Shown: piece after piece, positions 17,944 through 44,282 of the stretch
How the letters are laid out: each line of letters starts with the position of its first letter
How positions within the stretch are numbered: position 1 is the stretch's first letter
DNA from: Xanthomonas translucens pv. cerealis
Lineage (GTDB): Bacteria > Pseudomonadota > Gammaproteobacteria > Xanthomonadales > Xanthomonadaceae
NCBI RefSeq assembly: GCF_006838285.1
Contig: NZ_CP038228.1
Span: forward strand, 496,001 to 560,000
Length of the DNA stretch: 64,000 bases
Reading direction: 5' to 3'
The notes under the pieces: generated by a model
Told to the model about the DNA's origin: nothing
What the model saw: the letters and a program-made list of their open reading frames with translations, nothing else
The model's database searches: none
Translations under genes and position numbers: made by a program

Positions 17944-18005
17944 TTCGGTTTGCTTTTCGGAAATTCGTGGTTCATGGCCCGCGCGGTTTCACGCCGATCC
18001 AAAAT
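17944..18005 (+). promoter_or_regulatory. Perfect PIP box and -10 hexamer upstream of an effector-like gene
   Basis: TTCGG (17944-17948), 15 nt, TTCGT (17964-17968): a perfect TTCGB-N15-TTCGB plant-inducible promoter box. CAAAAT (18000-18005) fits the YANNNT -10 element and lies exactly 31 nt after the box, the same spacing as at four other boxes in this window. It predicts HrpX activation of the gene at 18042. Confidence 0.85.
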
Positions 18006-18041
18006 GGACGTCCTGTTTCGATTTCTACGAAGGAGACAATG

Positions 18042-18740
18042 ATGGGAAATATAAATCGCTGTTTTCGTTCCGGTGAGTCCAGTGCGCGTTACCAGCAAGA
18101 TGAGCACGCACACGGGTCTGCCACGCCGGGCTCGCCACATGAGCGCGATCCCTACCAGCCGGTTGCATCGAACAATCCGGCGCTTGCCGGCCTGCGACCC
18201 CGCGTCTCGAACGCGCCGGTACATCAGAGGGGCGTGGCAACTAACGAGGCCGGTCTGCAGGCGGTGCTTCGCGAGGCGCAACAATTGAGTCGTGAGATCG
18301 CTGAACAGGCCGAGCATGGGGATCCGGGTCTGCAACCGATCCTGGAGTCATTGAATAAAACTATCCGTAAAATCAACGGCAAGTTGAATGGCTCGCTTGG
18401 GAGCCGCGGTCCTGACGAGTATCGTTCAGAAATCCAACAAGTGCGCCGGGATTTCAACGCGTTCAATGAAGCAGCGGGCGGTTATCAAGGGGCGAACTTC
18501 GGATACAGCGGTGTGCTGCACTCGGGTTCTTTCGGGGGGGGCGCTGAGTCGTTCTGCCGCCGCCGAGCTTCGGTGGCGGTCGGCGCTGCCGATCGCGCTG
18601 GCTGCCCAGCGCGGTCCAGCGCGCCACGACACGCCAGGCGCATGATGCGGCGGTCGGCCTTGCGCCTTTCCCTTCAGTGGGTGGAATCACCGCTTCCGGC
18701 GGAAGTTTGCGCAGGGCGGCGAACAGCGCCTCGCCGCTGA
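18042..18740 (+). CDS. Candidate HrpX-regulated type III effector, probably 3'-truncated or frameshifted
   Basis: Not recognised. A perfect PIP box and -10 element precede it, and AGGAG lies 6 nt before the second ATG (18042), giving MGNINRCFRSGESSA. That N-terminus has Gly2 and Cys7, which could allow acylation in the host, although the classic Ser/Thr at position 6 is absent. Residues 1-65 are polar and disordered-looking; 65-150 form amphipathic helices (LREAQQLSREIAEQ, LNKTIRKINGKLNG); then comes GYSGVLHSGSFGGG. From the G8 tract (18534-18541) onward the frame becomes Arg/Ala-rich with no protein-like pattern, so the real gene probably ended or shifted here. It may be an effector cut by rearrangement, or one whose tail depends on the G-tract length. 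Confidence 0.5.
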   Translation: MGNINRCFRSGESSARYQQDEHAHGSATPGSPHERDPYQPVASNNPALAGLRPRVSNAPVHQRGVATNEAGLQAVLREAQQLSREIAEQAEHGDPGLQPILESLNKTIRKINGKLNGSLGSRGPDEYRSEIQQVRRDFNAFNEAAGGYQGANFGYSGVLHSGSFGGGAESFCRRRASVAVGAADRAGCPARSSAPRHARRMMRRSALRLSLQWVESPLPAEVCAGRRTAPRR

Positions 18741-18894: not shown

Positions 18895-20958
18895 CTACGT
18901 GCTGGTCCGCGGCCGCCCGTTGCGCCAATCGAGCAGCGCTTGGCGCTGCATCAGCAGCCCACGCACGTCGGTGACCTGGTCTTGCAGTGTGCGCAGCCGA
19001 TTCAGGGTCTGCTGCTCGATGCCGTCCGGCGCGTCGAGCACCTGGCCGATGGTGGCGAGGGCTGTCTCGAATCTGCTTCGTTCGAGCACGCCCGTCCCAT
19101 GCTGCAGCGACTGCTCCAGCGCGGCAGCGACCTGCTGCAGGCGCGCATTCTGGGTCTGCTCGGCTGCATTGCGAATGAGGTCGATCTCCGGCTGCAACCC
19201 GGCCTGGATGGTCAATGCCCTCGACCTCAGCCTGGCCTGTTTGTTGTCGCGATGCCCGTCCAGGTTGACGGCCAGGTCGTGCTTGGTATCGCTCAGTGCG
19301 CTGTTGGTCGCATTCCAGACCGCGTCGTTGGAGAAGGACTGGCCGAATTGCTGGACGACGCTGCCGGGCGAGGACAGGGATTCATTGGTGCCAGGCGTGC
19401 CGTAGCTGCCGCGCACCAGCGACGCCAGGACCATGCCTCCGCCGGTGGCGACCCAACTGGTCAAGATATTACCGCCCATATGGCGCAGCAGCAGGTCGCG
19501 TACGCTGCGCACCGCCATCAGCGGCGACGTGAACGGTAGCGTTGCCAGGGCGCCTGCTTCCTGCGCGATCTCCACAAGCGTGTGATGCAACCGCCGCGCG
19601 TCGCTCCAGCGCAGCGCCGGCGCCGATTCGTCGTGGCGGGCGAGCCGGAACAGATTGACCGTCTGGGTGCCGCCGACCAGATTGTCCACCTGGGTCTGGC
19701 CGACCCGAGGTAGCGCCTTGCCGGTTTCGAGGATGGCCTTGCCGAGCGCACCGGAGGTGCCGGAGCCGATCATCGATGTGCCCAACACAAGGGGCGGTGA
19801 CAGCAGGGTTGCGGTGCTGCTCAGGCTGCGCCGTACCCCGTTGAGCGTGCCGCTCAGCACCGGTTTCAGGAAGGTTGCCTCGGCCTTGCCGTCCATCAAC
19901 TTCTGTCGCTCCAACAGCTGCCGTTGCCGGTCGCGCGCGATGCTCTGCAGTTTCCCGAAGGTCGGTCGGTCGCCTTCGTGTTCGAGGTGCGAGACCTCCT
20001 CGTCGCGCAGTGGCCGCCAAAAGTGCTTGTTCCCCTCCGCGGTGATCTCCATTTGCACCGGTCCGGGCTCCGGGCTGAGAATGGACGGCGCAATGGGCTT
20101 GAACGCGGGCATGTTGGCCAGGCGCGCGCGGCGTTCGATGGCGCTCAACAGGATCTGCTCTGTGAAGTAGGAGGTGATTCCGGAGGTGGCCCCGCCGACC
20201 GCCGTCGGGCCGACCTTGGTGGTGAGGCTGCCGTCTTGCTGGTCGTACTTGGTCGCAGTGGCGCTGCCGGGAGGCGTTCGCAGTGCGGAGGAGAGAAATC
20301 CCTTCAGCGTTTCATAGGCTGCCGGCAACGCCGCCGCGGTGCCCGCCGCGCTCATGTTTTCGTTGAAGCGATAGCCGCCGTTCGGGCCGTACGCTTCGTG
20401 CCGCTGCTGCAATCGGTCGGCCGCCCACTCCACGTATTCCTCTTCCAGTTGCTCCTGGGTTTCCGGCGCATCGTCTGTGTCCGCGGTTGCGGGGTACTCG
20501 TTCAGGTAAATACGCAATTGGTTGACGAACGCCCGACGCTGCAATGCAGGGGGCGGCTGGCTGCGGCTGGCGCCCGAAGCCTGCGTCGAAGCGGGGCGCT
20601 GCAGCTGCGACAGCGACGCGACGTCGGAACGAGAGGACGGTTCCGGCTGCTCTTGAAGACGGCCTGCAACAGGCAGCGTGGCGGCGCGATCTGGGTCCTG
20701 CGATCCGATCCACAGGCGAATCTCTGGGACGGAGCTGCTTGCGGTTGACGGCGTCGCACCCTCCGCCGTGGGCGAACCGCCTGTCTGAAGGCGGCCGCTG
20801 CGCTGCGACCCTGGGCGCGGTGCGCGCTGCGAGAGCGCCTCGGTCTGGATGTCGGCGGGCGGTGAGGGCTGGATCGATTCCTGCGGGGGCGTGGACGCCA
20901 TCTCGTGCGCAACGCGCGTCGGCGAGGTGGTGGCGGAGATGGGTGACGACGCTCTCAT
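18895..20958 (-). CDS. xopF: XopF-family type III secreted protein
   Basis: Predicted T3S effector of 687 residues, assigned to the XopF1/XopF2 family by overall character and by its location beside the hrp cluster with a dedicated chaperone. Residues 1-155 are Ser/Pro/Gln-rich (secretion and translocation signal type); a helical body follows, including LRIYLNEYPA, EEYVEWAADRLQQRHEAYG and, near 440-560, hydrophobic segments (TLLSPPLVLGTSMIG; VATGGGMVLASLV). The last 120 residues are predicted coiled helices rich in Gln and Leu. Its ATG overlaps the chaperone stop by 4 nt. Transcription should start at the PIP box at 21554-21578. The XopF family's host target is not known to me. Confidence 0.7.
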   Translation of the reverse strand: MRASSPISATTSPTRVAHEMASTPPQESIQPSPPADIQTEALSQRAPRPGSQRSGRLQTGGSPTAEGATPSTASSSVPEIRLWIGSQDPDRAATLPVAGRLQEQPEPSSRSDVASLSQLQRPASTQASGASRSQPPPALQRRAFVNQLRIYLNEYPATADTDDAPETQEQLEEEYVEWAADRLQQRHEAYGPNGGYRFNENMSAAGTAAALPAAYETLKGFLSSALRTPPGSATATKYDQQDGSLTTKVGPTAVGGATSGITSYFTEQILLSAIERRARLANMPAFKPIAPSILSPEPGPVQMEITAEGNKHFWRPLRDEEVSHLEHEGDRPTFGKLQSIARDRQRQLLERQKLMDGKAEATFLKPVLSGTLNGVRRSLSSTATLLSPPLVLGTSMIGSGTSGALGKAILETGKALPRVGQTQVDNLVGGTQTVNLFRLARHDESAPALRWSDARRLHHTLVEIAQEAGALATLPFTSPLMAVRSVRDLLLRHMGGNILTSWVATGGGMVLASLVRGSYGTPGTNESLSSPGSVVQQFGQSFSNDAVWNATNSALSDTKHDLAVNLDGHRDNKQARLRSRALTIQAGLQPEIDLIRNAAEQTQNARLQQVAAALEQSLQHGTGVLERSRFETALATIGQVLDAPDGIEQQTLNRLRTLQDQVTDVRGLLMQRQALLDWRNGRPRTST

Positions 20959-37779: not shown

Positions 37780-38156
37780 GCGCCCGTCGCCGCGCGTTTG
37801 CCTCGTTTTCGCTGCCGCCTTCGCCTTCGCAGCCACTGCGCCGGCGTTGTTGGTCTGCGCTCGCTGCCGGCGTGCCGAGGTCGACGGGCCGAATTTGTAT
37901 TTTCGAATATTATTCAATTATTGACCATCGTGCACTGTATGAGTTGCGCTGTCTATCGCTGGCAGCCCCGCAGAATCAATAGGTTGAAGGTGTTTGTCTG
38001 CGAAAGGCGACAGAATGAGACTTTTTGATCATCGTCCTGGGGTTATTTGCGGGATTCTGTTGCGGCGTCTACCTACAATGCATTGCGCCATCGCACCGCA
38101 TGTGCTGCAGACGTTTCTTGCGGTTCTTCCTCTCACTCCCCCGGAGAGAAAACGTT
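37780..38156 (+). other. hrcT-hrpX intergenic region
   Basis: 377 nt without a supported gene. It holds the most AT-rich stretch of the T3S island (about 37890-37960), with a small perfect dyad GAATA-T-TATTC at 37905-37915. No TTCG-N16-TTCG box is present; three TTCG tetramers around 37808-37829 have the wrong spacing. No terminator is obvious, so read-through from hrcT is possible. HrpG is expected to act in this region if hrpX has its own promoter. Confidence 0.45.
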
Positions 38157-39578
38157 ATGTTTCTGACCACCTATCTTGCTGCGATCTCTGCATTAACCCA
38201 TAACGAAACTTTGCCGAATTATTCGAAGAAGATTCTAGACGGAGCTTGGCCGCAGGCACTGCAATACCTGCATCATCGTCGCGATCAGGAGCATGAGGAC
38301 GGCGTCGGCGAGGCGAGTCTGTTATGCGCCATCGGCGATGGGTTGTTGATGATGGAATACGAAGAGGAGGCTGAGGAGTCCTATCGCCTGGCGCAGAAGC
38401 GGATGCGCAACGGCGGCGCGGACCTGCGTCTGCTCTCCTGTCGCAATACCGCCTGGCAGATGCTTCAGCAGCGCAGGCTCAGCGCCGCCTTGAACTGTTT
38501 CGGCCAATTGGCGGTGGATCGCGATGCCGATCAGCTGCTGCGGACGGAAAGCCTGATGGGCAAGGCGCTGTCGCACTTCCACCTGGGCCAGAGCATGCAG
38601 GCGCTGCAGGTCGTGGATCGCGCACAGGAAGCGGCGGCGGAGACCGAGACCGCCAAGCTGCTGGTGCCGGTCGTTCATGCCATGCGCCTGGACATGCTCG
38701 CGCAGTTGAGCATCCGCCGCTCCGAGCGGCTGATCGATCATGTCTTCTGGCAGGCTGCGGCATGCAACGAGAGATGGACCGGCACCTTCGATGCCGACGA
38801 GATCGACCGTTGCGTCGCCCAGGTCGCCGCGGCGATGCCGATCCTGGCGCGGCGGCTGCAGTTCGTGCGCGCCTTGTTGCGGATCGCCAGCGAAGATGTC
38901 AGCGCTTTCGATGCGGTTTACGACGCGATTCCGCAGCCTGCTGCGGCGTGTGGCCGCAACTCGCGGCATGGCCCCAAGCTGGAGCTGGCCCTGGCGGCGC
39001 TGGCCGCCGGTCGCGTCGACCTGGCCGAGCGCGCATTGGCCGGCGTGGTCAGGCAGGTATCGATGCGCTGGGATCTGGAACTGGAGTATTGCCAGGCCAA
39101 GATCTGCCATGCGTCCGGACGTACCGAGCAAGCCCTGCGCCTGTATAACCGCTATGCGCTGGATGCGGTGCAATGCCTGCGCAGCGAAGTGCAGATTGCG
39201 CGATCGCTGGAAGACCGCCCTGCGGCGCAGCTCAGCGACGACATTTCGGCGCGCTTGCCGGCAAAGTACCGTCGTGCCTATGCTTACATGCTGGAAAACG
39301 TGCATCGTCCCGACCTGTCGATCAACGAAGTGGCAGCGCAGATCGGGGTGACTGGGCGCGCCTTGCAGTTGGCGTTCAAAGCCGCCACTGGCATGTCGCC
39401 TACCCAGGTGCTGCGCCGTTACCGCATGCAGGGCATTCGCGATGAGCTGCTGTCCGAATCCGGCTGCGGCGGAGTGCTGCAGGCGGCCGAGCATTGGGGC
39501 GTGGTCAGCCGTTCGGCGCTGGTCAAGTGCTATCGGCGGCAGTTCGACGAAGTTCCGGCCGAAACCTTGCAGCGCTAA
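38157..39578 (+). CDS. hrpX: HrpX, AraC-family activator of PIP-box promoters
   Basis: Transcription activator that binds PIP boxes and turns on T3S and effector genes under HrpG control. The 473-residue product starts MFLTTYLAAISALTHN, closely matching the known HrpX N-terminus, followed by TLPNYSKKILDGAWPQAL. The central region is TPR-like helical. The C-terminal AraC domain is clear (LSINEVAAQIGVTGRALQLA, ATGMSPTQVLRRYRMQG). ATG 38157 has GGAGAG 10 nt upstream; the longer frame adds 44 non-conserved residues. Unusually it sits between hrcT and hrcC, 11 nt before hrcC. Confidence 0.95.
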   Translation: MFLTTYLAAISALTHNETLPNYSKKILDGAWPQALQYLHHRRDQEHEDGVGEASLLCAIGDGLLMMEYEEEAEESYRLAQKRMRNGGADLRLLSCRNTAWQMLQQRRLSAALNCFGQLAVDRDADQLLRTESLMGKALSHFHLGQSMQALQVVDRAQEAAAETETAKLLVPVVHAMRLDMLAQLSIRRSERLIDHVFWQAAACNERWTGTFDADEIDRCVAQVAAAMPILARRLQFVRALLRIASEDVSAFDAVYDAIPQPAAACGRNSRHGPKLELALAALAAGRVDLAERALAGVVRQVSMRWDLELEYCQAKICHASGRTEQALRLYNRYALDAVQCLRSEVQIARSLEDRPAAQLSDDISARLPAKYRRAYAYMLENVHRPDLSINEVAAQIGVTGRALQLAFKAATGMSPTQVLRRYRMQGIRDELLSESGCGGVLQAAEHWGVVSRSALVKCYRRQFDEVPAETLQR

Positions 39579-39589
39579 CAGGAGGATTA

Positions 39590-41440
39590 ATGAAACAGCA
39601 ACGTTCGCGATCGTCGGCAGTGCCACGCGCGTGTTTGACAGTGGCGTTGGCGATCGCGGTGCACGCCGCCGCCGCTCCGGCGACGGCGGCCGAGGTGCCC
39701 TGGCATCGCGGCAACTTCCAGTACGTGGTCGAAAACAAGGATTTGAAGGATGTCTTGCGCGACTTCGCCTCCAGCCAGGGGGTGATGACCTGGATTTCGC
39801 CTGAGGTCAGCGGCACGGTCAGCGGCAAGTTCGCTACCCCGCCGCAGAAGTTCCTGGACACGTTGGCGTCCAGCTACGGATTCGTCTGGTATTACGACGG
39901 TACGGTGTTGCGCGTGTGGGGCGGCAACGAAGTCACCAGCGCGACCTTGACCCTGTCCGCTGCCACCACCGACCAGGTGAAGTCGGCGCTGGAGCGGATG
40001 AGCGTGGCCGATCGGCGCTTTCCGATCCGCTATGACGACAAAGCGCGAACGCTGCTCGTCTCCGGCCCGCCCGGCTATGTGGAAACGGTGTCGGCGGTGG
40101 TGCGCTCGGTGGATCACAGCAGTGCGTTGCACGACGGTACGGAGATGCGCGTCTTCCCGTTGCATTATGCCCGTGCCGCCGATCGCACCGTTCAGATGGA
40201 CGGGCAAAGCGTACAGATCCCCGGGATGGTCACCTTGCTGCGCGGCATGTACACACATGCCTCGCAGAGCTCCAGCGGGCTGCCGTTCTCGACCAACCTC
40301 ATCGAGCGCGCGCTCGCCAACAAGGAACGCTTGCGCTCGTTGGAAGAGAGTATCAATAACGGGACGCGCAGCGATCCCGGCGGTGGAGCATCGGGCGTGG
40401 GGCTGCCAAACAACTGGTTCGGTCTGGGCGGCGCTCAGGCGCCGGTGCGGCCACCGTTGCCTAGCGGCGGGCCGGCTGCCGATACCACTGCCGCACCTGC
40501 GCCGGCTGGCGCGGACTATGGTGCCGGTGCCGGTGCCGGTGCCGGCGCTGGCGCCGCTGCGCGTAGCGCGGGGCAGGGCGCCGGGGGCAGCTCGGATCTG
40601 CCCTTCATCCAGGCCGATCCGCGCGTTAACGCCGTGGTGATCCGCGATCGCCCGGAACGCATGGACGGTTACGCATCGCTGATCCAGCAACTGGACGCGC
40701 GTCCGATGCTGCTGCAGATCGACGCGACGATCATCGAGGTACAGGACGGCGCCCTGCGCGATCTCGGCGTGGACTGGCGATTGCACAACCGCCATCTGGA
40801 CCTGCAGAACGGCGACGCAAAGGGCGCTGCGCTGGGCTACCGCGCTCCCGGCGCCAACCCGGGGCTGGGCGACAGTGCCGACGGGCTGACGCCTGGCGGC
40901 GGCATGCTCACGGCCGTGCTCGGCGATGCCGGTCGTTTTCTGATGACGCGGGTGTCGGCGCTGGAGCAGAGCAATCGCGCCAAGATCGTCTCTACGCCGA
41001 AAGTGGCGACGCTGGACAACGTCGAGGCCATCATGGACCAGCGGCAACGCTTCTTCGTGCGCGTGGCAGGCTATCAGAGCGCGGATCTGTACGGGCTGTC
41101 GGCCGGCGTTTCGCTGCGGGTGTTGCCCACGGTGATACCCGATTCAGAGGCCAAGCAGATTCGCCTCGACGTGCATATCGAGGATGGGCAGTTGACATCG
41201 AAGACGGTGGACCAGATTCCGGTGATCTCTTCCAGTCAGATCAATACCGAGGCCTTCGTCAACGACGGCGAGAGCCTGCTGATCGCCGGCTACGAGAGCA
41301 ACGACGACGAGAATAGCGTGACCGGCGTTCCGGGATTGTCCAAGGTGCCGGTGTTGGGCCGCCTGTTCCAGCATCGCTCCAAGCAGCGCAGCAGCGTGCA
41401 GCGTTTGTTCCTGCTGACGCCCCACGTGGTCTCGCCCTGA
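39590..41440 (+). CDS. hrcC: HrcC, outer-membrane secretin (SctC)
   Basis: Forms the outer-membrane pore of the T3S apparatus. The 616-residue product has a signal peptide (residues 1-32, Ala-rich, ending near TAAEVPW), N-terminal secretin N-domains (WHRGNFQYVVENKDLKDVL; SYGFVWYYDG), a Gly/Ala/Pro-rich linker around residues 285-340 with a GAGAGAGAGAGA run, and a C-terminal secretin barrel (NRAKIVSTPKVATLDNVEA; GESLLIAGYE; VPVLGRLFQHRS). AGGAGG lies 5 nt before the ATG, a strong ribosome-binding site. It follows hrpX after 11 nt, so the two are probably co-transcribed. It converges on hpa1 at a 13-bp stem-loop. Confidence 0.95.
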   Translation: MKQQRSRSSAVPRACLTVALAIAVHAAAAPATAAEVPWHRGNFQYVVENKDLKDVLRDFASSQGVMTWISPEVSGTVSGKFATPPQKFLDTLASSYGFVWYYDGTVLRVWGGNEVTSATLTLSAATTDQVKSALERMSVADRRFPIRYDDKARTLLVSGPPGYVETVSAVVRSVDHSSALHDGTEMRVFPLHYARAADRTVQMDGQSVQIPGMVTLLRGMYTHASQSSSGLPFSTNLIERALANKERLRSLEESINNGTRSDPGGGASGVGLPNNWFGLGGAQAPVRPPLPSGGPAADTTAAPAPAGADYGAGAGAGAGAGAAARSAGQGAGGSSDLPFIQADPRVNAVVIRDRPERMDGYASLIQQLDARPMLLQIDATIIEVQDGALRDLGVDWRLHNRHLDLQNGDAKGAALGYRAPGANPGLGDSADGLTPGGGMLTAVLGDAGRFLMTRVSALEQSNRAKIVSTPKVATLDNVEAIMDQRQRFFVRVAGYQSADLYGLSAGVSLRVLPTVIPDSEAKQIRLDVHIEDGQLTSKTVDQIPVISSSQINTEAFVNDGESLLIAGYESNDDENSVTGVPGLSKVPVLGRLFQHRSKQRSSVQRLFLLTPHVVSP

Positions 41441-41486: not shown

Positions 41487-41957
41487 TCAATTGATCTGGG
41501 GGCCAGGGCCTTGCTCGAAGCTGTTGTTGCCGAAGCCGCCGCTCATGCCGCCGCCGAAGCCGCCGCCCATGCCGCCGCCCATGCCGCCGCCCTGCAACTG
41601 CTGCAGGAGCGTCGACAGTACAGCCATCAGCACCTGGCCAACGCCGTCAATGCCCTGGCCACCCTGCTGGCCACCCTGGCCGCCGCCCTGACCGGGACCC
41701 TGCCCGCCGCCGCTCTGGTCGGGACCCTGAGCGCCCTGGCCCTGCTGGCCCTGCTGGCCCTGCTGGCAATCCTGGCCCTGCTGCGGGCCCTGCAATTGCT
41801 TAAGCAGCGTCTCGATCAGCTTAAGCATCAACTGGTCGATCTGCGCGGAGGAGTTGCCACCGTCGCAGTTGTTGGAGGGGGATTGGGTGTTGGCGGTTTC
41901 GGTATTGACGTTCTGAGCAGAGGCAGCGAAGTTTCCACCGATGTTTAGAAGGCTCAT
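41487..41957 (-). CDS. hpa1: Hpa1/HpaG-type harpin
   Basis: Secreted heat-stable harpin that helps translocation and can trigger plant responses. The 156-residue product (MSLLNIGGNFAASAQ) is Gly- and Gln-rich, as in Hpa1. It has the amphipathic harpin helix IDQLMLKLIETLLKQLQ near residues 39-56, a Gln/Gly-rich middle (QQGQQGQQGQGAQG), a second helix (GVGQVLMAVLSTLLQQLQGG) and a C-terminal GGGMGGG-type repeat coded by imperfect 12-nt units. It has two Cys and some Phe, unlike the most compact harpins, and is longer than the common 137 residues. Transcription should start from the PIP box at 42063-42087. Confidence 0.9.
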   Translation of the reverse strand: MSLLNIGGNFAASAQNVNTETANTQSPSNNCDGGNSSAQIDQLMLKLIETLLKQLQGPQQGQDCQQGQQGQQGQGAQGPDQSGGGQGPGQGGGQGGQQGGQGIDGVGQVLMAVLSTLLQQLQGGGMGGGMGGGFGGGMSGGFGNNSFEQGPGPQIN

Positions 41958-42025: not shown

Positions 42026-42087
42026 AAGGTAGACGCCCGATCCGCAGCGGTACCGTCGATCCACGAAATTGGACCGCCGTGAGCGAA
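42026..42087 (-). promoter_or_regulatory. hpa1: Perfect PIP box and -10 for hpa1
   Basis: On the minus strand TTCGC (42087-42083), 15 nt, TTCGT (42067-42063). The hexamer TACCTT (42031-42026) fits YANNNT and lies exactly 31 nt downstream. It is divergent from the next box, with 46 nt between them. Confidence 0.88.
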
Positions 42088-42133: not shown

Positions 42134-42195
42134 TTCGCAGAGGGAGCGATCGGTTCGGTTGAAGCGGCAAGTGTACGCGCGCCTGCACTTAGTGT
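42134..42195 (+). promoter_or_regulatory. Perfect PIP box and -10 for the 448-residue gene and hpa2
   Basis: TTCGC (42134-42138), 15 nt, TTCGG (42154-42158). TAGTGT (42190-42195) fits YANNNT, exactly 31 nt downstream. The gene begins 75 nt after the -10. This is strong evidence that the unrecognised gene belongs to the HrpX regulon. Confidence 0.88.
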
Positions 42196-42270
42196 TGGAT
42201 CGCGGCCGTCTGATCGGTCGCTGGTCCGGGCCGGAACCGGTTCACTTCGACAAAAAATGAGGACTTTTCG

Positions 42271-43617
42271 ATGAGCCTTAAAAGTTTCTTCAAAAGTATC
42301 GGGCATGGCATCACCAATGCGGTAGAAGATGTCGCACACGGCGTCGAGCAGGGGGCGAAAGACATAGCCAAAGGCGTGGAAGGTGCCGTAGAGCATGGCG
42401 TCCATGCTTTCGGCGACGTCCTGCAGGGGGATTTCAGGGGCGGGCTTCATGAATTGGGGCAGGCTGGCAAGGCCGTGGGCGACACCGCCAAGGCCGAGTT
42501 CAAGCTGGGCTTGACCGTTGGCGGGGCGATGACCGATCTGGCCCTGGGTACTGTGGCCGATGCGCATCTGAGCAAGGGCCTCACCAAGCTCGCCGAGACC
42601 GCCAAGGGCGGGCTGGACAAGGCCCGCGACGCCGTCGATAAAAGCCTGAATCAAGTCGTCGATTCCGCCGAAGGCGCGGTGGCCGGCGGCATGCGTTGCG
42701 TCGATGACGTGGCACATGGCCGTTTCGACCGCCTGGGCAAGGATAGCCTGTCCGTGGCGGGCAATGCGTTCAACCTGTGCACCTCGCTGACGCCGGAAGG
42801 CATGGTCGCCAATGTCGGCGCCAATCTCACCCGTTCGTTTATGGATGGCACGCCCCTGTCCAAGTACGCCAATGTCATCGGCGATACGATGGCGCGCAAG
42901 CCGCTGTGGATGCTGCGCGACGGCGCCAAGGACGTGGCCGAGCCGTTTCTGGATCCGCTGAAAAAGGATCTGGCCTCGGCCGACGCCGCCGTCAACCGTA
43001 CTTTGGACAAAGCGGAGAACGGCATCAGCGGCACTTTGGACAAAGCGGAGAACGGCATCAGCCGCACGTTGGCCGAAGCGGCCGTTGCCTCGGGCTTGGC
43101 GGTCCAGGGCGGCATGACGGCGCAATCGCAGACGCCGCCGCTGTCCGAGGCTCAGGAGGATGCGATTGCGCGCCAGTTGGCGGATGCCATGGAAAGGAAG
43201 GACACGCAATTCGGCGGGCAGGACAATCTGTCTATGCAGGACGGGCGCGGCGATACGCCGTTGCTGTCCAAGGCTCAGGAGGATGCGATTGCGGGCCAGT
43301 TGGCGGATGCCCTGAATGACAATCTGTCGACACAGGACGGGCGCGGCGATACGCCGCAGCTGTCCGAGGCTCAGGAGGATGCGATTGCGGGCCAGTTGGC
43401 GGATGCCCTGAATGACAATCTGTCGACACAGGACGGGCGCGGCGATACGCCGCAGCTGTCCGAGGCTCAGGAGGATGCGATTGCGCGCCAGTTGGCGGAT
43501 GCCATGGAAGGGAAGGACAAGCAATCCGGCCGGGAAGAAGGCTTGCTGGCTTCACTCTTCGGCGAACCGGCGCTTTCCGCCTCGGCGGACGTGTCGTTCC
43601 AGCTCCATACGGTGTAG
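42271..43617 (+). CDS. Unrecognised HrpX-regulated 448-residue protein with C-terminal tandem repeats
   Basis: I do not recognise this gene. The PIP box and -10 upstream, the neighbour hpa1 (divergent) and hpa2 (5 nt downstream) place it in the T3S regulon. The N-terminus MSLKSFFKSIGHGITNAVED starts an amphipathic helical region (to about residue 60) with repeated HG-V-x-x-G/A spacing. Residues 60-245 are Ala/Gly/Asp/Lys-rich helices with one mildly hydrophobic stretch (FKLGLTVGGAMTDLALG). Residues 245-275 carry 11-residue repeats (TLDKAENGISG). Residues 290-420 hold four copies of a roughly 32-residue repeat with the core LSEAQEDAIAGQLADA. No Sec signal peptide and no strong transmembrane helix are seen. 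It may be a secreted effector, a pilus-tip or helper protein, or a substitute for the missing HrpF. Function unknown. Confidence 0.85.
   Translation: MSLKSFFKSIGHGITNAVEDVAHGVEQGAKDIAKGVEGAVEHGVHAFGDVLQGDFRGGLHELGQAGKAVGDTAKAEFKLGLTVGGAMTDLALGTVADAHLSKGLTKLAETAKGGLDKARDAVDKSLNQVVDSAEGAVAGGMRCVDDVAHGRFDRLGKDSLSVAGNAFNLCTSLTPEGMVANVGANLTRSFMDGTPLSKYANVIGDTMARKPLWMLRDGAKDVAEPFLDPLKKDLASADAAVNRTLDKAENGISGTLDKAENGISRTLAEAAVASGLAVQGGMTAQSQTPPLSEAQEDAIARQLADAMERKDTQFGGQDNLSMQDGRGDTPLLSKAQEDAIAGQLADALNDNLSTQDGRGDTPQLSEAQEDAIAGQLADALNDNLSTQDGRGDTPQLSEAQEDAIARQLADAMEGKDKQSGREEGLLASLFGEPALSASADVSFQLHTV
43237..43524 (+). repeat. 96-bp tandem repeat, three copies plus a degenerate fourth
   Basis: Units begin CAGGACGGGCGCGGCGATAC at 43237, 43333 and 43429, exactly 96 bp apart, and each encodes 32 residues. 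The second and third units are nearly identical over most of their length. A related, longer-spaced copy of the core (CTGTCCGAGGCTCAGGAGGA) starts at 43141. Upstream, a 33-bp unit starting ACTTTGGACAAAGCGGAGAA is duplicated at 43000 and 43033. The near identity points to recent expansion. Confidence 0.92.
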
Positions 43618-43622
43618 CCCGT

Positions 43623-44282
43623 ATGCGACGGATAGGATGGCTGCTTGCGGCGTGGCTAGCCACGCCGCTGGCACATGCCGGTTGCTTTGAGCAGGCCGCG
43701 GCCTATCAGCAGGTCAATGCGCGCGTGCTCAAGGCCATCGCCTGGCAGGAGTCGCGCGCCCGGCCGCAGACGGTGCATCGCAACGCCAACGGCAGCATCG
43801 ACTATGGGCAGATGCAGATCAATTCGATCCATCTGCGGCGCCTGTCGCAGTACGGGGTCTCGGTGCGCGAGCTGATGGATCCCTGCGAAAGTACCTATGT
43901 GGCGGCCTGGCATCTGCGGCAGATGATGAACAAGTACGGCAATAGCTGGGCGGCGGTGGGCGCCTATCACTCGGAGACGCCGGCCGAGCGCGATCGCTAC
44001 GCGCGTTCGGTACGCCAGATCCTGGAATCGGACCAGCGGTTCGCGCGCTTCGAACAGTCGTCGGGGCCGCTGCCGCAAGGACAGGACATGCGCACGGCGC
44101 GTGCGGATGTCCAGCCTGATCGTGCGCAGGCGCAGTCGCAGGCGCAGGCGCTGCAGCAGGCGCCTGCGCGGCGTCAGTCGGCGGTCGGGAGCGATCCGGT
44201 GCAGATCGCCGAACAGATGCTACGCAAGCGTCCGCCTCCGGAGGACGATCGCTGCCTGTTCGAGGATCTGGCTGCGTGTTGA
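43623..44282 (+). CDS. hpa2: Hpa2, lysozyme-like lytic transglycosylase
   Basis: Periplasmic muramidase thought to open peptidoglycan for the T3S apparatus. The 219-residue product has a signal peptide (MRRIGWLLAAWLATPLAHA) and an SLT domain: catalytic Glu in AIAWQESRARPQ, then GSIDYGQMQINSIH and WAAVGAYHSETPAERDRYA. The last 65 residues are a Gln/Ala-rich polar tail. It starts 5 nt after the 448-residue gene and must share its transcript. In canonical clusters hpa2 lies next to hpa1; here a gene is inserted between them. Confidence 0.92.
   Translation: MRRIGWLLAAWLATPLAHAGCFEQAAAYQQVNARVLKAIAWQESRARPQTVHRNANGSIDYGQMQINSIHLRRLSQYGVSVRELMDPCESTYVAAWHLRQMMNKYGNSWAAVGAYHSETPAERDRYARSVRQILESDQRFARFEQSSGPLPQGQDMRTARADVQPDRAQAQSQAQALQQAPARRQSAVGSDPVQIAEQMLRKRPPPEDDRCLFEDLAAC

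What the first reader, a model, noticed from the sequence alone, without database searches (positions are those of the whole stretch)
42134..43617. Unrecognised PIP-driven 448-residue protein inserted between hpa1 and hpa2
A perfect PIP box with a -10 hexamer at the same 31-nt spacing as the core hrp operons drives this gene, and hpa2 starts 5 nt after it. I cannot assign the protein to a known Hrp, Hpa or Xop family. It has no Sec signal, an amphipathic N-terminus, Ala/Gly/Asp-rich helices and a repeat tail, consistent with a T3S substrate. With no hrpF in the window, a translocation-helper role is one hypothesis, though it lacks strong membrane helices.
Basis: partly seen in the sequence, partly recalled or inferred. 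Interest (0 to 1): 0.82.

Follow-up and report, generated by a model that had tools for sequence, protein, structure and literature searches.

The report
HpaT, a stand-in type III translocon
This gene is hpaT, already described in the bacteria that cause leaf streak of wheat and barley, and its protein likely helps the bacterial injection machine pass proteins through the plant cell membrane in strains that lack the usual helper, HrpF.

Summary
In detail: a perfect PIP box with a -10 hexamer at 31 nt precedes a 448-codon gene ending 5 nt before hpa2/hpaH. It is not unrecognised. It is hpaT (first hgiA) of the Xanthomonas translucens group, described and mutated by Pesce et al. 2017 (PMC5483457): same position, same CCCGT spacer, same 20-residue repeat (4 copies).

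Added here: of 398 Burkholderiaceae genomes, 14 carry a strong HpaT homologue, each beside hrcC. Of 13 with HrpF/NolX, 7 have it beside hrcC instead. No locus examined has both, but 4 genomes do, so the published mutual exclusivity fails at genome level. Orientation differs between Xanthomonas and Burkholderiaceae. HpaT shows no detectable similarity to HrpF and no transmembrane segment; its N-terminal part has strong amphipathic-helix periodicity. AlphaFold models were unusable. Verdict: already known; the slot swap is a modest addition.

The parts
42134..42158 (+). PIP box (TTCGC-N15-TTCGG), predicted HrpX target, promoter of hpaT-hpaH
42190..42195 (+). -10 hexamer TAGTGT, 31 nt after the PIP box
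42259..42263 (+). GAGGA, likely ribosome-binding site of hpaT
   Evidence: read from the sequence
42271..43617 (+). hpaT (hgiA), 448 codons
   Evidence: homologues; literature
42271..42975 (+). conserved region of HpaT, residues 1-235: amphipathic helices and the LTPEG motif (residues 173-177)
   Evidence: alignments; helix periodicity
42992..43081 (+). 33-bp tandem repeat (11-residue unit), 2.7 copies
43129..43503 (+). repeat tail: four copies of the 20-residue HpaT motif (residues 287-306, 328-347, 360-379, 392-411); 96-bp DNA repeat at 43222-43503
   Evidence: motif as given by Pesce et al.
43618..43622 (+). 5-nt spacer CCCGT between hpaT and hpaH
   Evidence: same spacer reported for X. 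translucens
43623..44282 (+). hpaH/hpa2, lytic transglycosylase (SLT domain E 1.6e-19; IagB-like), second gene of the operon
41487..41957 (-). xopA/hpa1, divergent harpin-like gene
   Evidence: 36.2 bits, below the model's cut-off of 100
42063..42087 (-). divergent PIP box of xopA/hpa1, -10 at 31 nt
39590..41440 (+). hrcC (SctC secretin), upstream neighbour; start taken as the Met of MKQQRSR, 11 nt after the hrpX stop
38025..39578 (+). hrpX (AraC-type regulator); open frame as listed, the true start may lie further in
   Evidence: named by its position and by its matches in homologous clusters, one of which is AraC-type

Best explanation
The gene is hpaT of a Xanthomonas translucens-group bacterium, predicted to be switched on by HrpX together with the lytic transglycosylase gene hpaH, and its protein likely acts as a translocon component of the type III system that would bind or enter the plant membrane through long amphipathic helices, doing the job that the unrelated HrpF is thought to do in other xanthomonads. 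Shown here: identity, promoter anatomy, gene layout, limits of homology, amphipathic periodicity, no transmembrane segment by hydropathy, no HrpF/NolX match in the genome, and a conserved position next to hrcC in Burkholderiaceae. Shown in print for other strains: induction by HrpG/HrpX, co-transcription with hpaH, loss of disease and of the hypersensitive response in a polar insertion mutant, and restoration by X. euvesicatoria hrpF. Inferred: that HpaT is secreted by the type III system, that it touches the plant membrane, and that the helices do this.
For: Identity: same PIP, gene order and CCCGT spacer as published. Four copies of the published 20-residue motif, the number given for CFBP 2541. 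99% identical to P0001, an unnamed entry whose longest contig is 4,504,942 bp, the length given for CFBP 2541. Function in print: PMC5483457. Position: 14 of 14 strong Burkholderiaceae homologues lie 160-3290 nt from the hrcC stop in a cluster with hrpX, and in 7 of 13 genomes with HrpF that gene sits beside hrcC instead. Helices: mean 18-residue hydrophobic moment over residues 1-235 is 0.383, against 0.202 +/- 0.022 (maximum 0.260) in 300 shuffles. In the window protein, hydropathy autocorrelation over residues 1-150 peaks at lags 4, 7, 11, 15, 18 and 22; in residues 1-55, 21 of 21 aligned members show a helical peak (97.5-100 degrees) that none of 200 shuffles each reached. NolX is not among the Pfam hits of the protein and has no match in the genome.
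Against: The published hpaT insertion was polar on hpaH, and hpaH alone partly restored the mutant, so HpaT is not strictly required. hpaT hardly restored an hrpF mutant. Four of the 14 Burkholderiaceae genomes with a strong homologue also carry HrpF, so HpaT is not simply what a genome uses when HrpF is missing. In all 14 Burkholderiaceae loci hpaT runs opposite to hrcC, while in the window it runs with hrcC and has xopA between, so 'the same slot' is loose across the two groups. Amphipathic periodicity also fits a soluble helix bundle; in residues 1-150, 3 of 21 members peak at 103.5 degrees, nearer a heptad pattern, and in 2 of 21 one of 200 shuffles reached the peak. No transmembrane helix is evident, and no structure supports membrane insertion: both models have mean pLDDT about 37. 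13 of 14 Burkholderiaceae homologues have no PIP-like box within 400 nt upstream, and the one match has no -10 at the right spacing. No solved structure matches convincingly. hpaH is not found in the fetched 18-kb stretches of the 14 Burkholderiaceae hpaT loci at E 1e-5.
Confidence: 0.72

Rival explanations
1. HpaT is a secreted harpin-like helper or pilus-associated protein that assists effector export or docking without inserting into the plant membrane, working with HpaH at the envelope.
For: No 19-residue stretch above 1.55 (Kyte-Doolittle) in 21 of 21 aligned members. The window protein is Ala/Gly/Asp-rich and acidic (charge -28), with 2 Cys and 1 Trp. In print it is co-transcribed with the gene of a predicted peptidoglycan-cutting enzyme, and hpaH alone partly restores the polar mutant.
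Against: hrpF, a putative translocon protein, fully restored the mutant's pepper reaction, which fits a translocon role better. Strong amphipathic periodicity, though a soluble bundle could show it too.
Confidence: 0.18
2. HpaT is an effector: injected and acting inside plant cells.
For: HrpX-type promoter, sequence and repeat-number variability among strains, no Sec signal apparent.
Against: The published mutant also lost a non-host response that the authors ascribe to another, unidentified effector, and hrpF restored it; loss of one effector would not be expected to do that. No effector family model matches.
Confidence: 0.07
3. The phenotype belongs to HpaH, and HpaT is a minor or dispensable passenger of the operon.
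For: The mutants described in what I read are polar insertions, and hpaH alone gave partial restoration.
Against: hpaT alone also gave partial, slightly stronger restoration. 14 of 14 strong Burkholderiaceae homologues keep the place beside hrcC without hpaH in the fetched stretch, so HpaT is conserved on its own.
Confidence: 0.05

Closest known systems
HpaT (HgiA) of Xanthomonas translucens, X. theicola and X. hyacinthi (Pesce et al. 2017)
   Same: Same gene: position, promoter, spacer, repeat motif, sequence. 80% and 83% to the full-length entries named X. translucens (P0002, P0004), 99% to the unnamed P0001; 53% to G001 (X. theicola by P0013) over residues 1-287 and 42% to G010 (X. hyacinthi by P0012) over 3-236.
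   Different: Strain-level differences: four repeat copies here, against 2 to 7 reported among strains. The 20-residue motif is not found in the X. theicola and X. hyacinthi proteins.
HrpF / PopF / NolX (PF05819)
   Same: Putative translocon role; hrpF restores an hpaT mutant in print. In 7 Burkholderiaceae clusters HrpF sits beside hrcC, where HpaT sits in 14 others.
   Different: No detectable homology (hhalign probability 0.4%, 17 columns). HrpF is longer (565-795 residues in the 11 of alignment A5), lies on the same strand as hrcC in the 7 slot loci (HpaT on the opposite strand in the 14), and has on the whole more hydrophobic segments (highest 19-residue means 1.33-1.86 against 0.99-1.55).
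HrpK1/HrpW1/HrpZ1/HopAK1 of Pseudomonas syringae (semi-redundant translocators)
   Same: Same idea of several partly redundant helpers of translocation (as told in PMC5483457).
   Different: Pesce et al. found no homologues in X. translucens. Not compared here by sequence.

Membership tests
HpaT | Plant-inducible promoter (PIP box plus -10) and position between xopA and hpaH | tested here: met
   compared
HpaT | CCCGT spacer between the TAG of hpaT and the ATG of hpaH | tested here: met
   published
HpaT | 20-residue repeat D/Q-TP-L/P-LSEAQED-A/S-IA-R/G-QLADA | tested here: met
   four copies, with small departures: K for E in the second, Q at the L/P position in the third and fourth
HpaT | Sequence homology to X. 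translucens HpaT | tested here: met
   The DAR61454 entry P0009 shows two motif copies (read), the number published for that strain; P0002 shows five, the number published for Xtu4699, but its strain was not named to me
HpaT | No predicted transmembrane helix | tested here: met
   Kyte-Doolittle scan only; TMHMM, Phobius and TOPCONS were used by Pesce et al.
HpaT | Induction by HrpG/HrpX and co-transcription with hpaH | not testable with these tools
   shown in print for strain UPB820
HpaT | Mutant loses disease and hypersensitive response | not testable with these tools
   shown in print for two strains, polar insertion
HrpF/NolX (PF05819) | NolX domain or profile similarity | tested here: not met
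   not among the Pfam hits up to E 1; hhalign 0.4%
Type III translocon component (function) | Secreted by the type III system and inserted in, or bound to, the host membrane | not testable with these tools
   amphipathic helices only suggest it
Known Xop/Hop/Rip effector family | Match to a curated effector family model | tested here: not met
   no match above cut-off in Pfam or NCBIfam
Phage or anti-phage defence protein | Match in PHROGs or PADLOC | tested here: not met
   0 families each at E 0.01

The most novel reading that the evidence does not exclude
HpaT and HrpF are two unrelated translocator families that compete for one address, the place next to hrcC in hrpX-hrcC type clusters: 14 loci hold HpaT, 7 hold HrpF, none examined holds both. 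HpaT carries effectors across the host membrane with a long 11-residue-repeat amphipathic helix bundle instead of hydrophobic hairpins. Four genomes that own both, with HrpF away from the hrc genes, mean that the two can work side by side, so HpaT is a second type of translocon rather than only a substitute.
Probability: 0.35. Interest if true: 0.5.

Novelty: already known. Interest (0 to 1): 0.27.

Why it matters
How plant-pathogen type III systems cross the plant membrane is still unclear, and HpaT is a published candidate that cannot be recognised from HrpF. The slot swap in Burkholderiaceae supports the idea that the two are alternatives at one locus, and the genomes with both show that the published mutual exclusivity is not strict. 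They offer a natural comparison. For annotation, no Pfam or NCBIfam model matches HpaT above its cut-off, and the named database entries are still 'hypothetical protein'.

Tried and rejected
Structure: two AlphaFold jobs, one on the whole protein with 9 Xanthomonas rows and one on residues 1-269 with 9 rows including distant homologues, gave mean pLDDT 36.6 and 37.3. I therefore ran no fold search; the models say only 'all helical', at low confidence.

Weak Pfam hits (Sigma70_r1_2, Perilipin, Unstab_antitox, MT0933_antitox) lie below their cut-offs and were not followed. Perilipin is a membrane-surface binder with 11-residue repeats (recalled), so that hit is at most a likeness of helix pattern.

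The first named-genome scan found no relative. The second found Trinickia, plus two Lachnospiraceae stretches with 47 and 59 residues matched, which I set aside as likely chance matches without testing. The order-level hit G043 (E 9.9e-4) was set aside the same way. A class-wide draw of 369 genomes matched only the window's own. In some searches at most 4 candidates per genome were scored, so the counts are lower bounds; one search scored all candidates in 23 of the genomes and gave the same 14.

The profile hits G559, G612 (195-codon frames) and G451 (E 2.6e-6) were dropped from the count of 14 strong homologues. G559 and G612 have no hrc marker in the fetched stretch; G451 was not fetched. 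With these three the count is 17 of 398. For HrpF I used the best match of each of 13 genomes; G462 has a second, partial match elsewhere (E 8.9e-16), not followed.

A slip: the HrpF model was built from 8 frames, of which 2 (from L050 and L055) were opposite-strand frames taken by mistake, and the true frames of L050, L051, L053 and L055 were left out. It gave some false opposite-strand hits, which I ignored. The HrpF genes themselves stand on PF05819 at the same places, and the model was rebuilt from 11 correct-strand frames (A5). In one search the start codon of the L067 homologue is uncertain, so its upstream stretch may be shifted.

HrpF in clade-2 xanthomonads could not be examined: none of the 20 held genomes of the genus matches NolX. 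Four of the 20 have SctC over the cut-off; three of these have an SctC beside HpaT, and two further SctC over the cut-off (in G001 and G002) were not classified. So exclusivity within Xanthomonas rests on the paper. Plasmid records: no match.

Full report
Observation. Window 42134-42158 is a perfect PIP box (consensus recalled), the -10 hexamer TAGTGT follows after 31 nt, a GAGGA lies just upstream of the ATG at 42271, and the 448-codon frame stops at 43617, five bases (CCCGT) before hpa2/hpaH. Seven PIP boxes in the window have a -10 at 30-32 nt, all at 31; 60 simulated windows gave a mean of 0.05 and a maximum of 1. The divergent gene on the left is xopA/hpa1 with its own PIP box, and the gene on the right has a lytic transglycosylase domain.

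Identity. The gene is hpaT. Pesce et al. 2017 (PMC5483457; abstract, passages and sections 11, 16 and 17 read) describe in X. translucens, X. hyacinthi and X. theicola a PIP-controlled gene between xopA and hpaH, first hgiA and then hpaT, with a CCCGT spacer to hpaH in the X. translucens strains and a 20-residue repeat whose copy number varies from 2 to 7 among the strains listed. The window has the position, the spacer and four motif copies. Its protein is 99% identical to P0001, an unnamed entry whose longest contig is 4,504,942 bp, the length given for pv. cerealis CFBP 2541 (PMC8924669, passages); Pesce et al. give four copies for that strain. P0009, named for DAR61454, shows two copies (read), as printed for that strain; P0002 shows five, the number printed for Xtu4699, though its strain is not named in the listing. 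The window's genome has 4,622,198 bases in one contig, close to the 4,622,298 bp of pv. cerealis NXtc01 (PMC6737349, passages), so it is likely that strain or a near twin. No Pfam or NCBIfam model matches the protein above its cut-off, which explains why it looked unassigned.

What is known of function. In print, and for other strains: hpaT is induced by HrpG and HrpX and co-transcribed with hpaH; an hpaT insertion abolished disease on barley and the pepper response; hpaT or hpaH alone each partly restored it; X. euvesicatoria hrpF restored the pepper response fully, while hpaT hardly restored an hrpF mutant. The insertion was polar on hpaH, so the share of HpaT itself is not cleanly separated. 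I saw no secretion or membrane test of HpaT in the parts read.

Family reach. Three protein searches and a named-genome scan found homologues in X. translucens, X. graminis, X. theicola, X. hyacinthi, Ralstonia mannitolilytica (P0016), two entries without a genus (P0014, P0015) and Trinickia dabaoshanensis (L016). In the Trinickia locus the gene stands beside genes for SctC (hrcC), an AraC-type regulator, SctT, SctN and SctJ. The paper already reported betaproteobacterial homologues typically near type III clusters. The motif LTPEG (residues 173-177) is invariant in the nine-row alignment; in the 21-row alignment four of its five residues stay invariant and the Thr is nearly so.

Slot analysis. 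In 398 Burkholderiaceae genomes drawn from a larger group, the HpaT profile matches 17, of which 14 strongly (E 1.2e-60 or better), and the NolX/HrpF profile matches 13 (at most 4 candidates scored per genome). The 14 strong HpaT genes each lie next to hrcC (gap 160-3290 nt) in clusters ordered hrcN-hrcT-hrpX-hrcC (hrcN not seen in one, G439, where the fetched stretch ends), on the strand opposite to hrcC. In 7 of the 13 genomes HrpF lies beside hrcC instead (gap 173-1861 nt), on the strand of hrcC (one of these, G670, shows only hrcC and hrpX of the markers). In the other six the best HrpF match lies elsewhere: in two about 19 and 28 kb away, with neither gene next to hrcC, and in four without any hrc marker in the 13-18 kb fetched. 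No locus examined has both genes. The nine HrpF-only genomes stay without HpaT when all candidates are scored with the wider 21-row profile. These loci were chosen because they carry one of the two genes, so clusters with neither are under-counted. In Xanthomonas the layout is similar but not the same: hpaT runs with hrcC, and xopA lies between them (window, L002, L003).

Against the published exclusivity. Four genomes (G469, G493, G494, G583) carry both genes. Three of them belong to one genus in which 6 of 16 genomes have HpaT and 3 of 16 have HrpF, all three of the latter also with HpaT. That genus is likely Ralstonia, since R. mannitolilytica HpaT is 71-83% identical to the six HpaT proteins found in it. 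The statement that HrpF and HpaT exclude each other therefore holds per locus, not per genome, in this sample. Searches of the paper library (8, 9 and 3 papers, overlapping) listed no title that treats this; I read parts of four of those papers (PMC5483457, and passages of PMC8924669, PMC8195340 and PMC6737349) and not the rest.

How it might work. HpaT and HrpF are unrelated by profile comparison (hhalign probability 0.4%). No member of the 21-row alignment has a 19-residue stretch above 1.55 on the Kyte-Doolittle scale. The first 235 residues of the window protein are strongly amphipathic as helices (mean moment 0.383 against 0.202 +/- 0.022 in shuffles), and over its first 150 residues hydropathy repeats at lags such as 4, 7, 11, 15 and 22. 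In residues 1-55 the helical periodicity is seen in 21 of 21 members; over residues 1-150 the peak is at 96-99.5 degrees in 18 and at 103.5 in 3, and 2 of 21 had one of 200 shuffles reach it. The members are related, so these are not independent tests. Patterns of 11 residues are known from membrane-surface binders such as apolipoproteins, synuclein and perilipins (recalled), but soluble helix bundles are amphipathic too. The likely picture is a secreted protein that lies on or enters the plant membrane by amphipathic helices, with the variable repeat tail exposed. Secretion, membrane contact and pore formation are inferred. AlphaFold gave no usable model, and no solved structure matches convincingly.

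Limits. 13 of 14 Burkholderiaceae homologues lack a PIP-like box within 400 nt upstream, and hpaH is not found in their fetched stretches, so the PIP-hpaT-hpaH operon is particular to Xanthomonas in this sample. None of the 20 held genomes of the window's genus has a NolX match, so the HrpF-bearing xanthomonads could not be compared.

Verdict. A correct observation and a good guess about a gene that is already named and partly tested.

Noticed in passing
window 17944-18740 (+): Another PIP box with -10 at 31 nt in front of a 233-codon gene without any NCBIfam match, next to xopF (18895-20958, minus strand; XopF2 718 bits). It fits the position published for hgiB, the second unknown HrpX-controlled gene; a hgiB mutant had no phenotype in print.
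   Followed up: partly
Burkholderiaceae genomes G469, G493, G494, G583 (L065/L083, L060/L084, L069/L085, L064/L086): Genomes with both HpaT (next to hrcC) and HrpF (away from the hrc genes), against the published mutual exclusivity.
   Followed up: partly
L074, L075, L076, L080: hpaH-like genes lie near the HrpF-slot clusters in 4 of 7 loci and in none of the 14 HpaT-slot loci (fetched stretches of up to 18 kb), the reverse of the Xanthomonas hpaT-hpaH pairing.
   Followed up: no
G523:C2 (L087) and G665:C3 (L088): hrpX-hrcC clusters with neither HpaT nor HrpF next to hrcC; HrpF lies about 19 and 28 kb away.
   Followed up: partly
G001 and G002 (same genus): Additional type III secretins over the family cut-off: a second SctC in the X. 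theicola-like genome G001, and one in the 3.7-Mb genome G002, which has no HpaT match.
   Followed up: no
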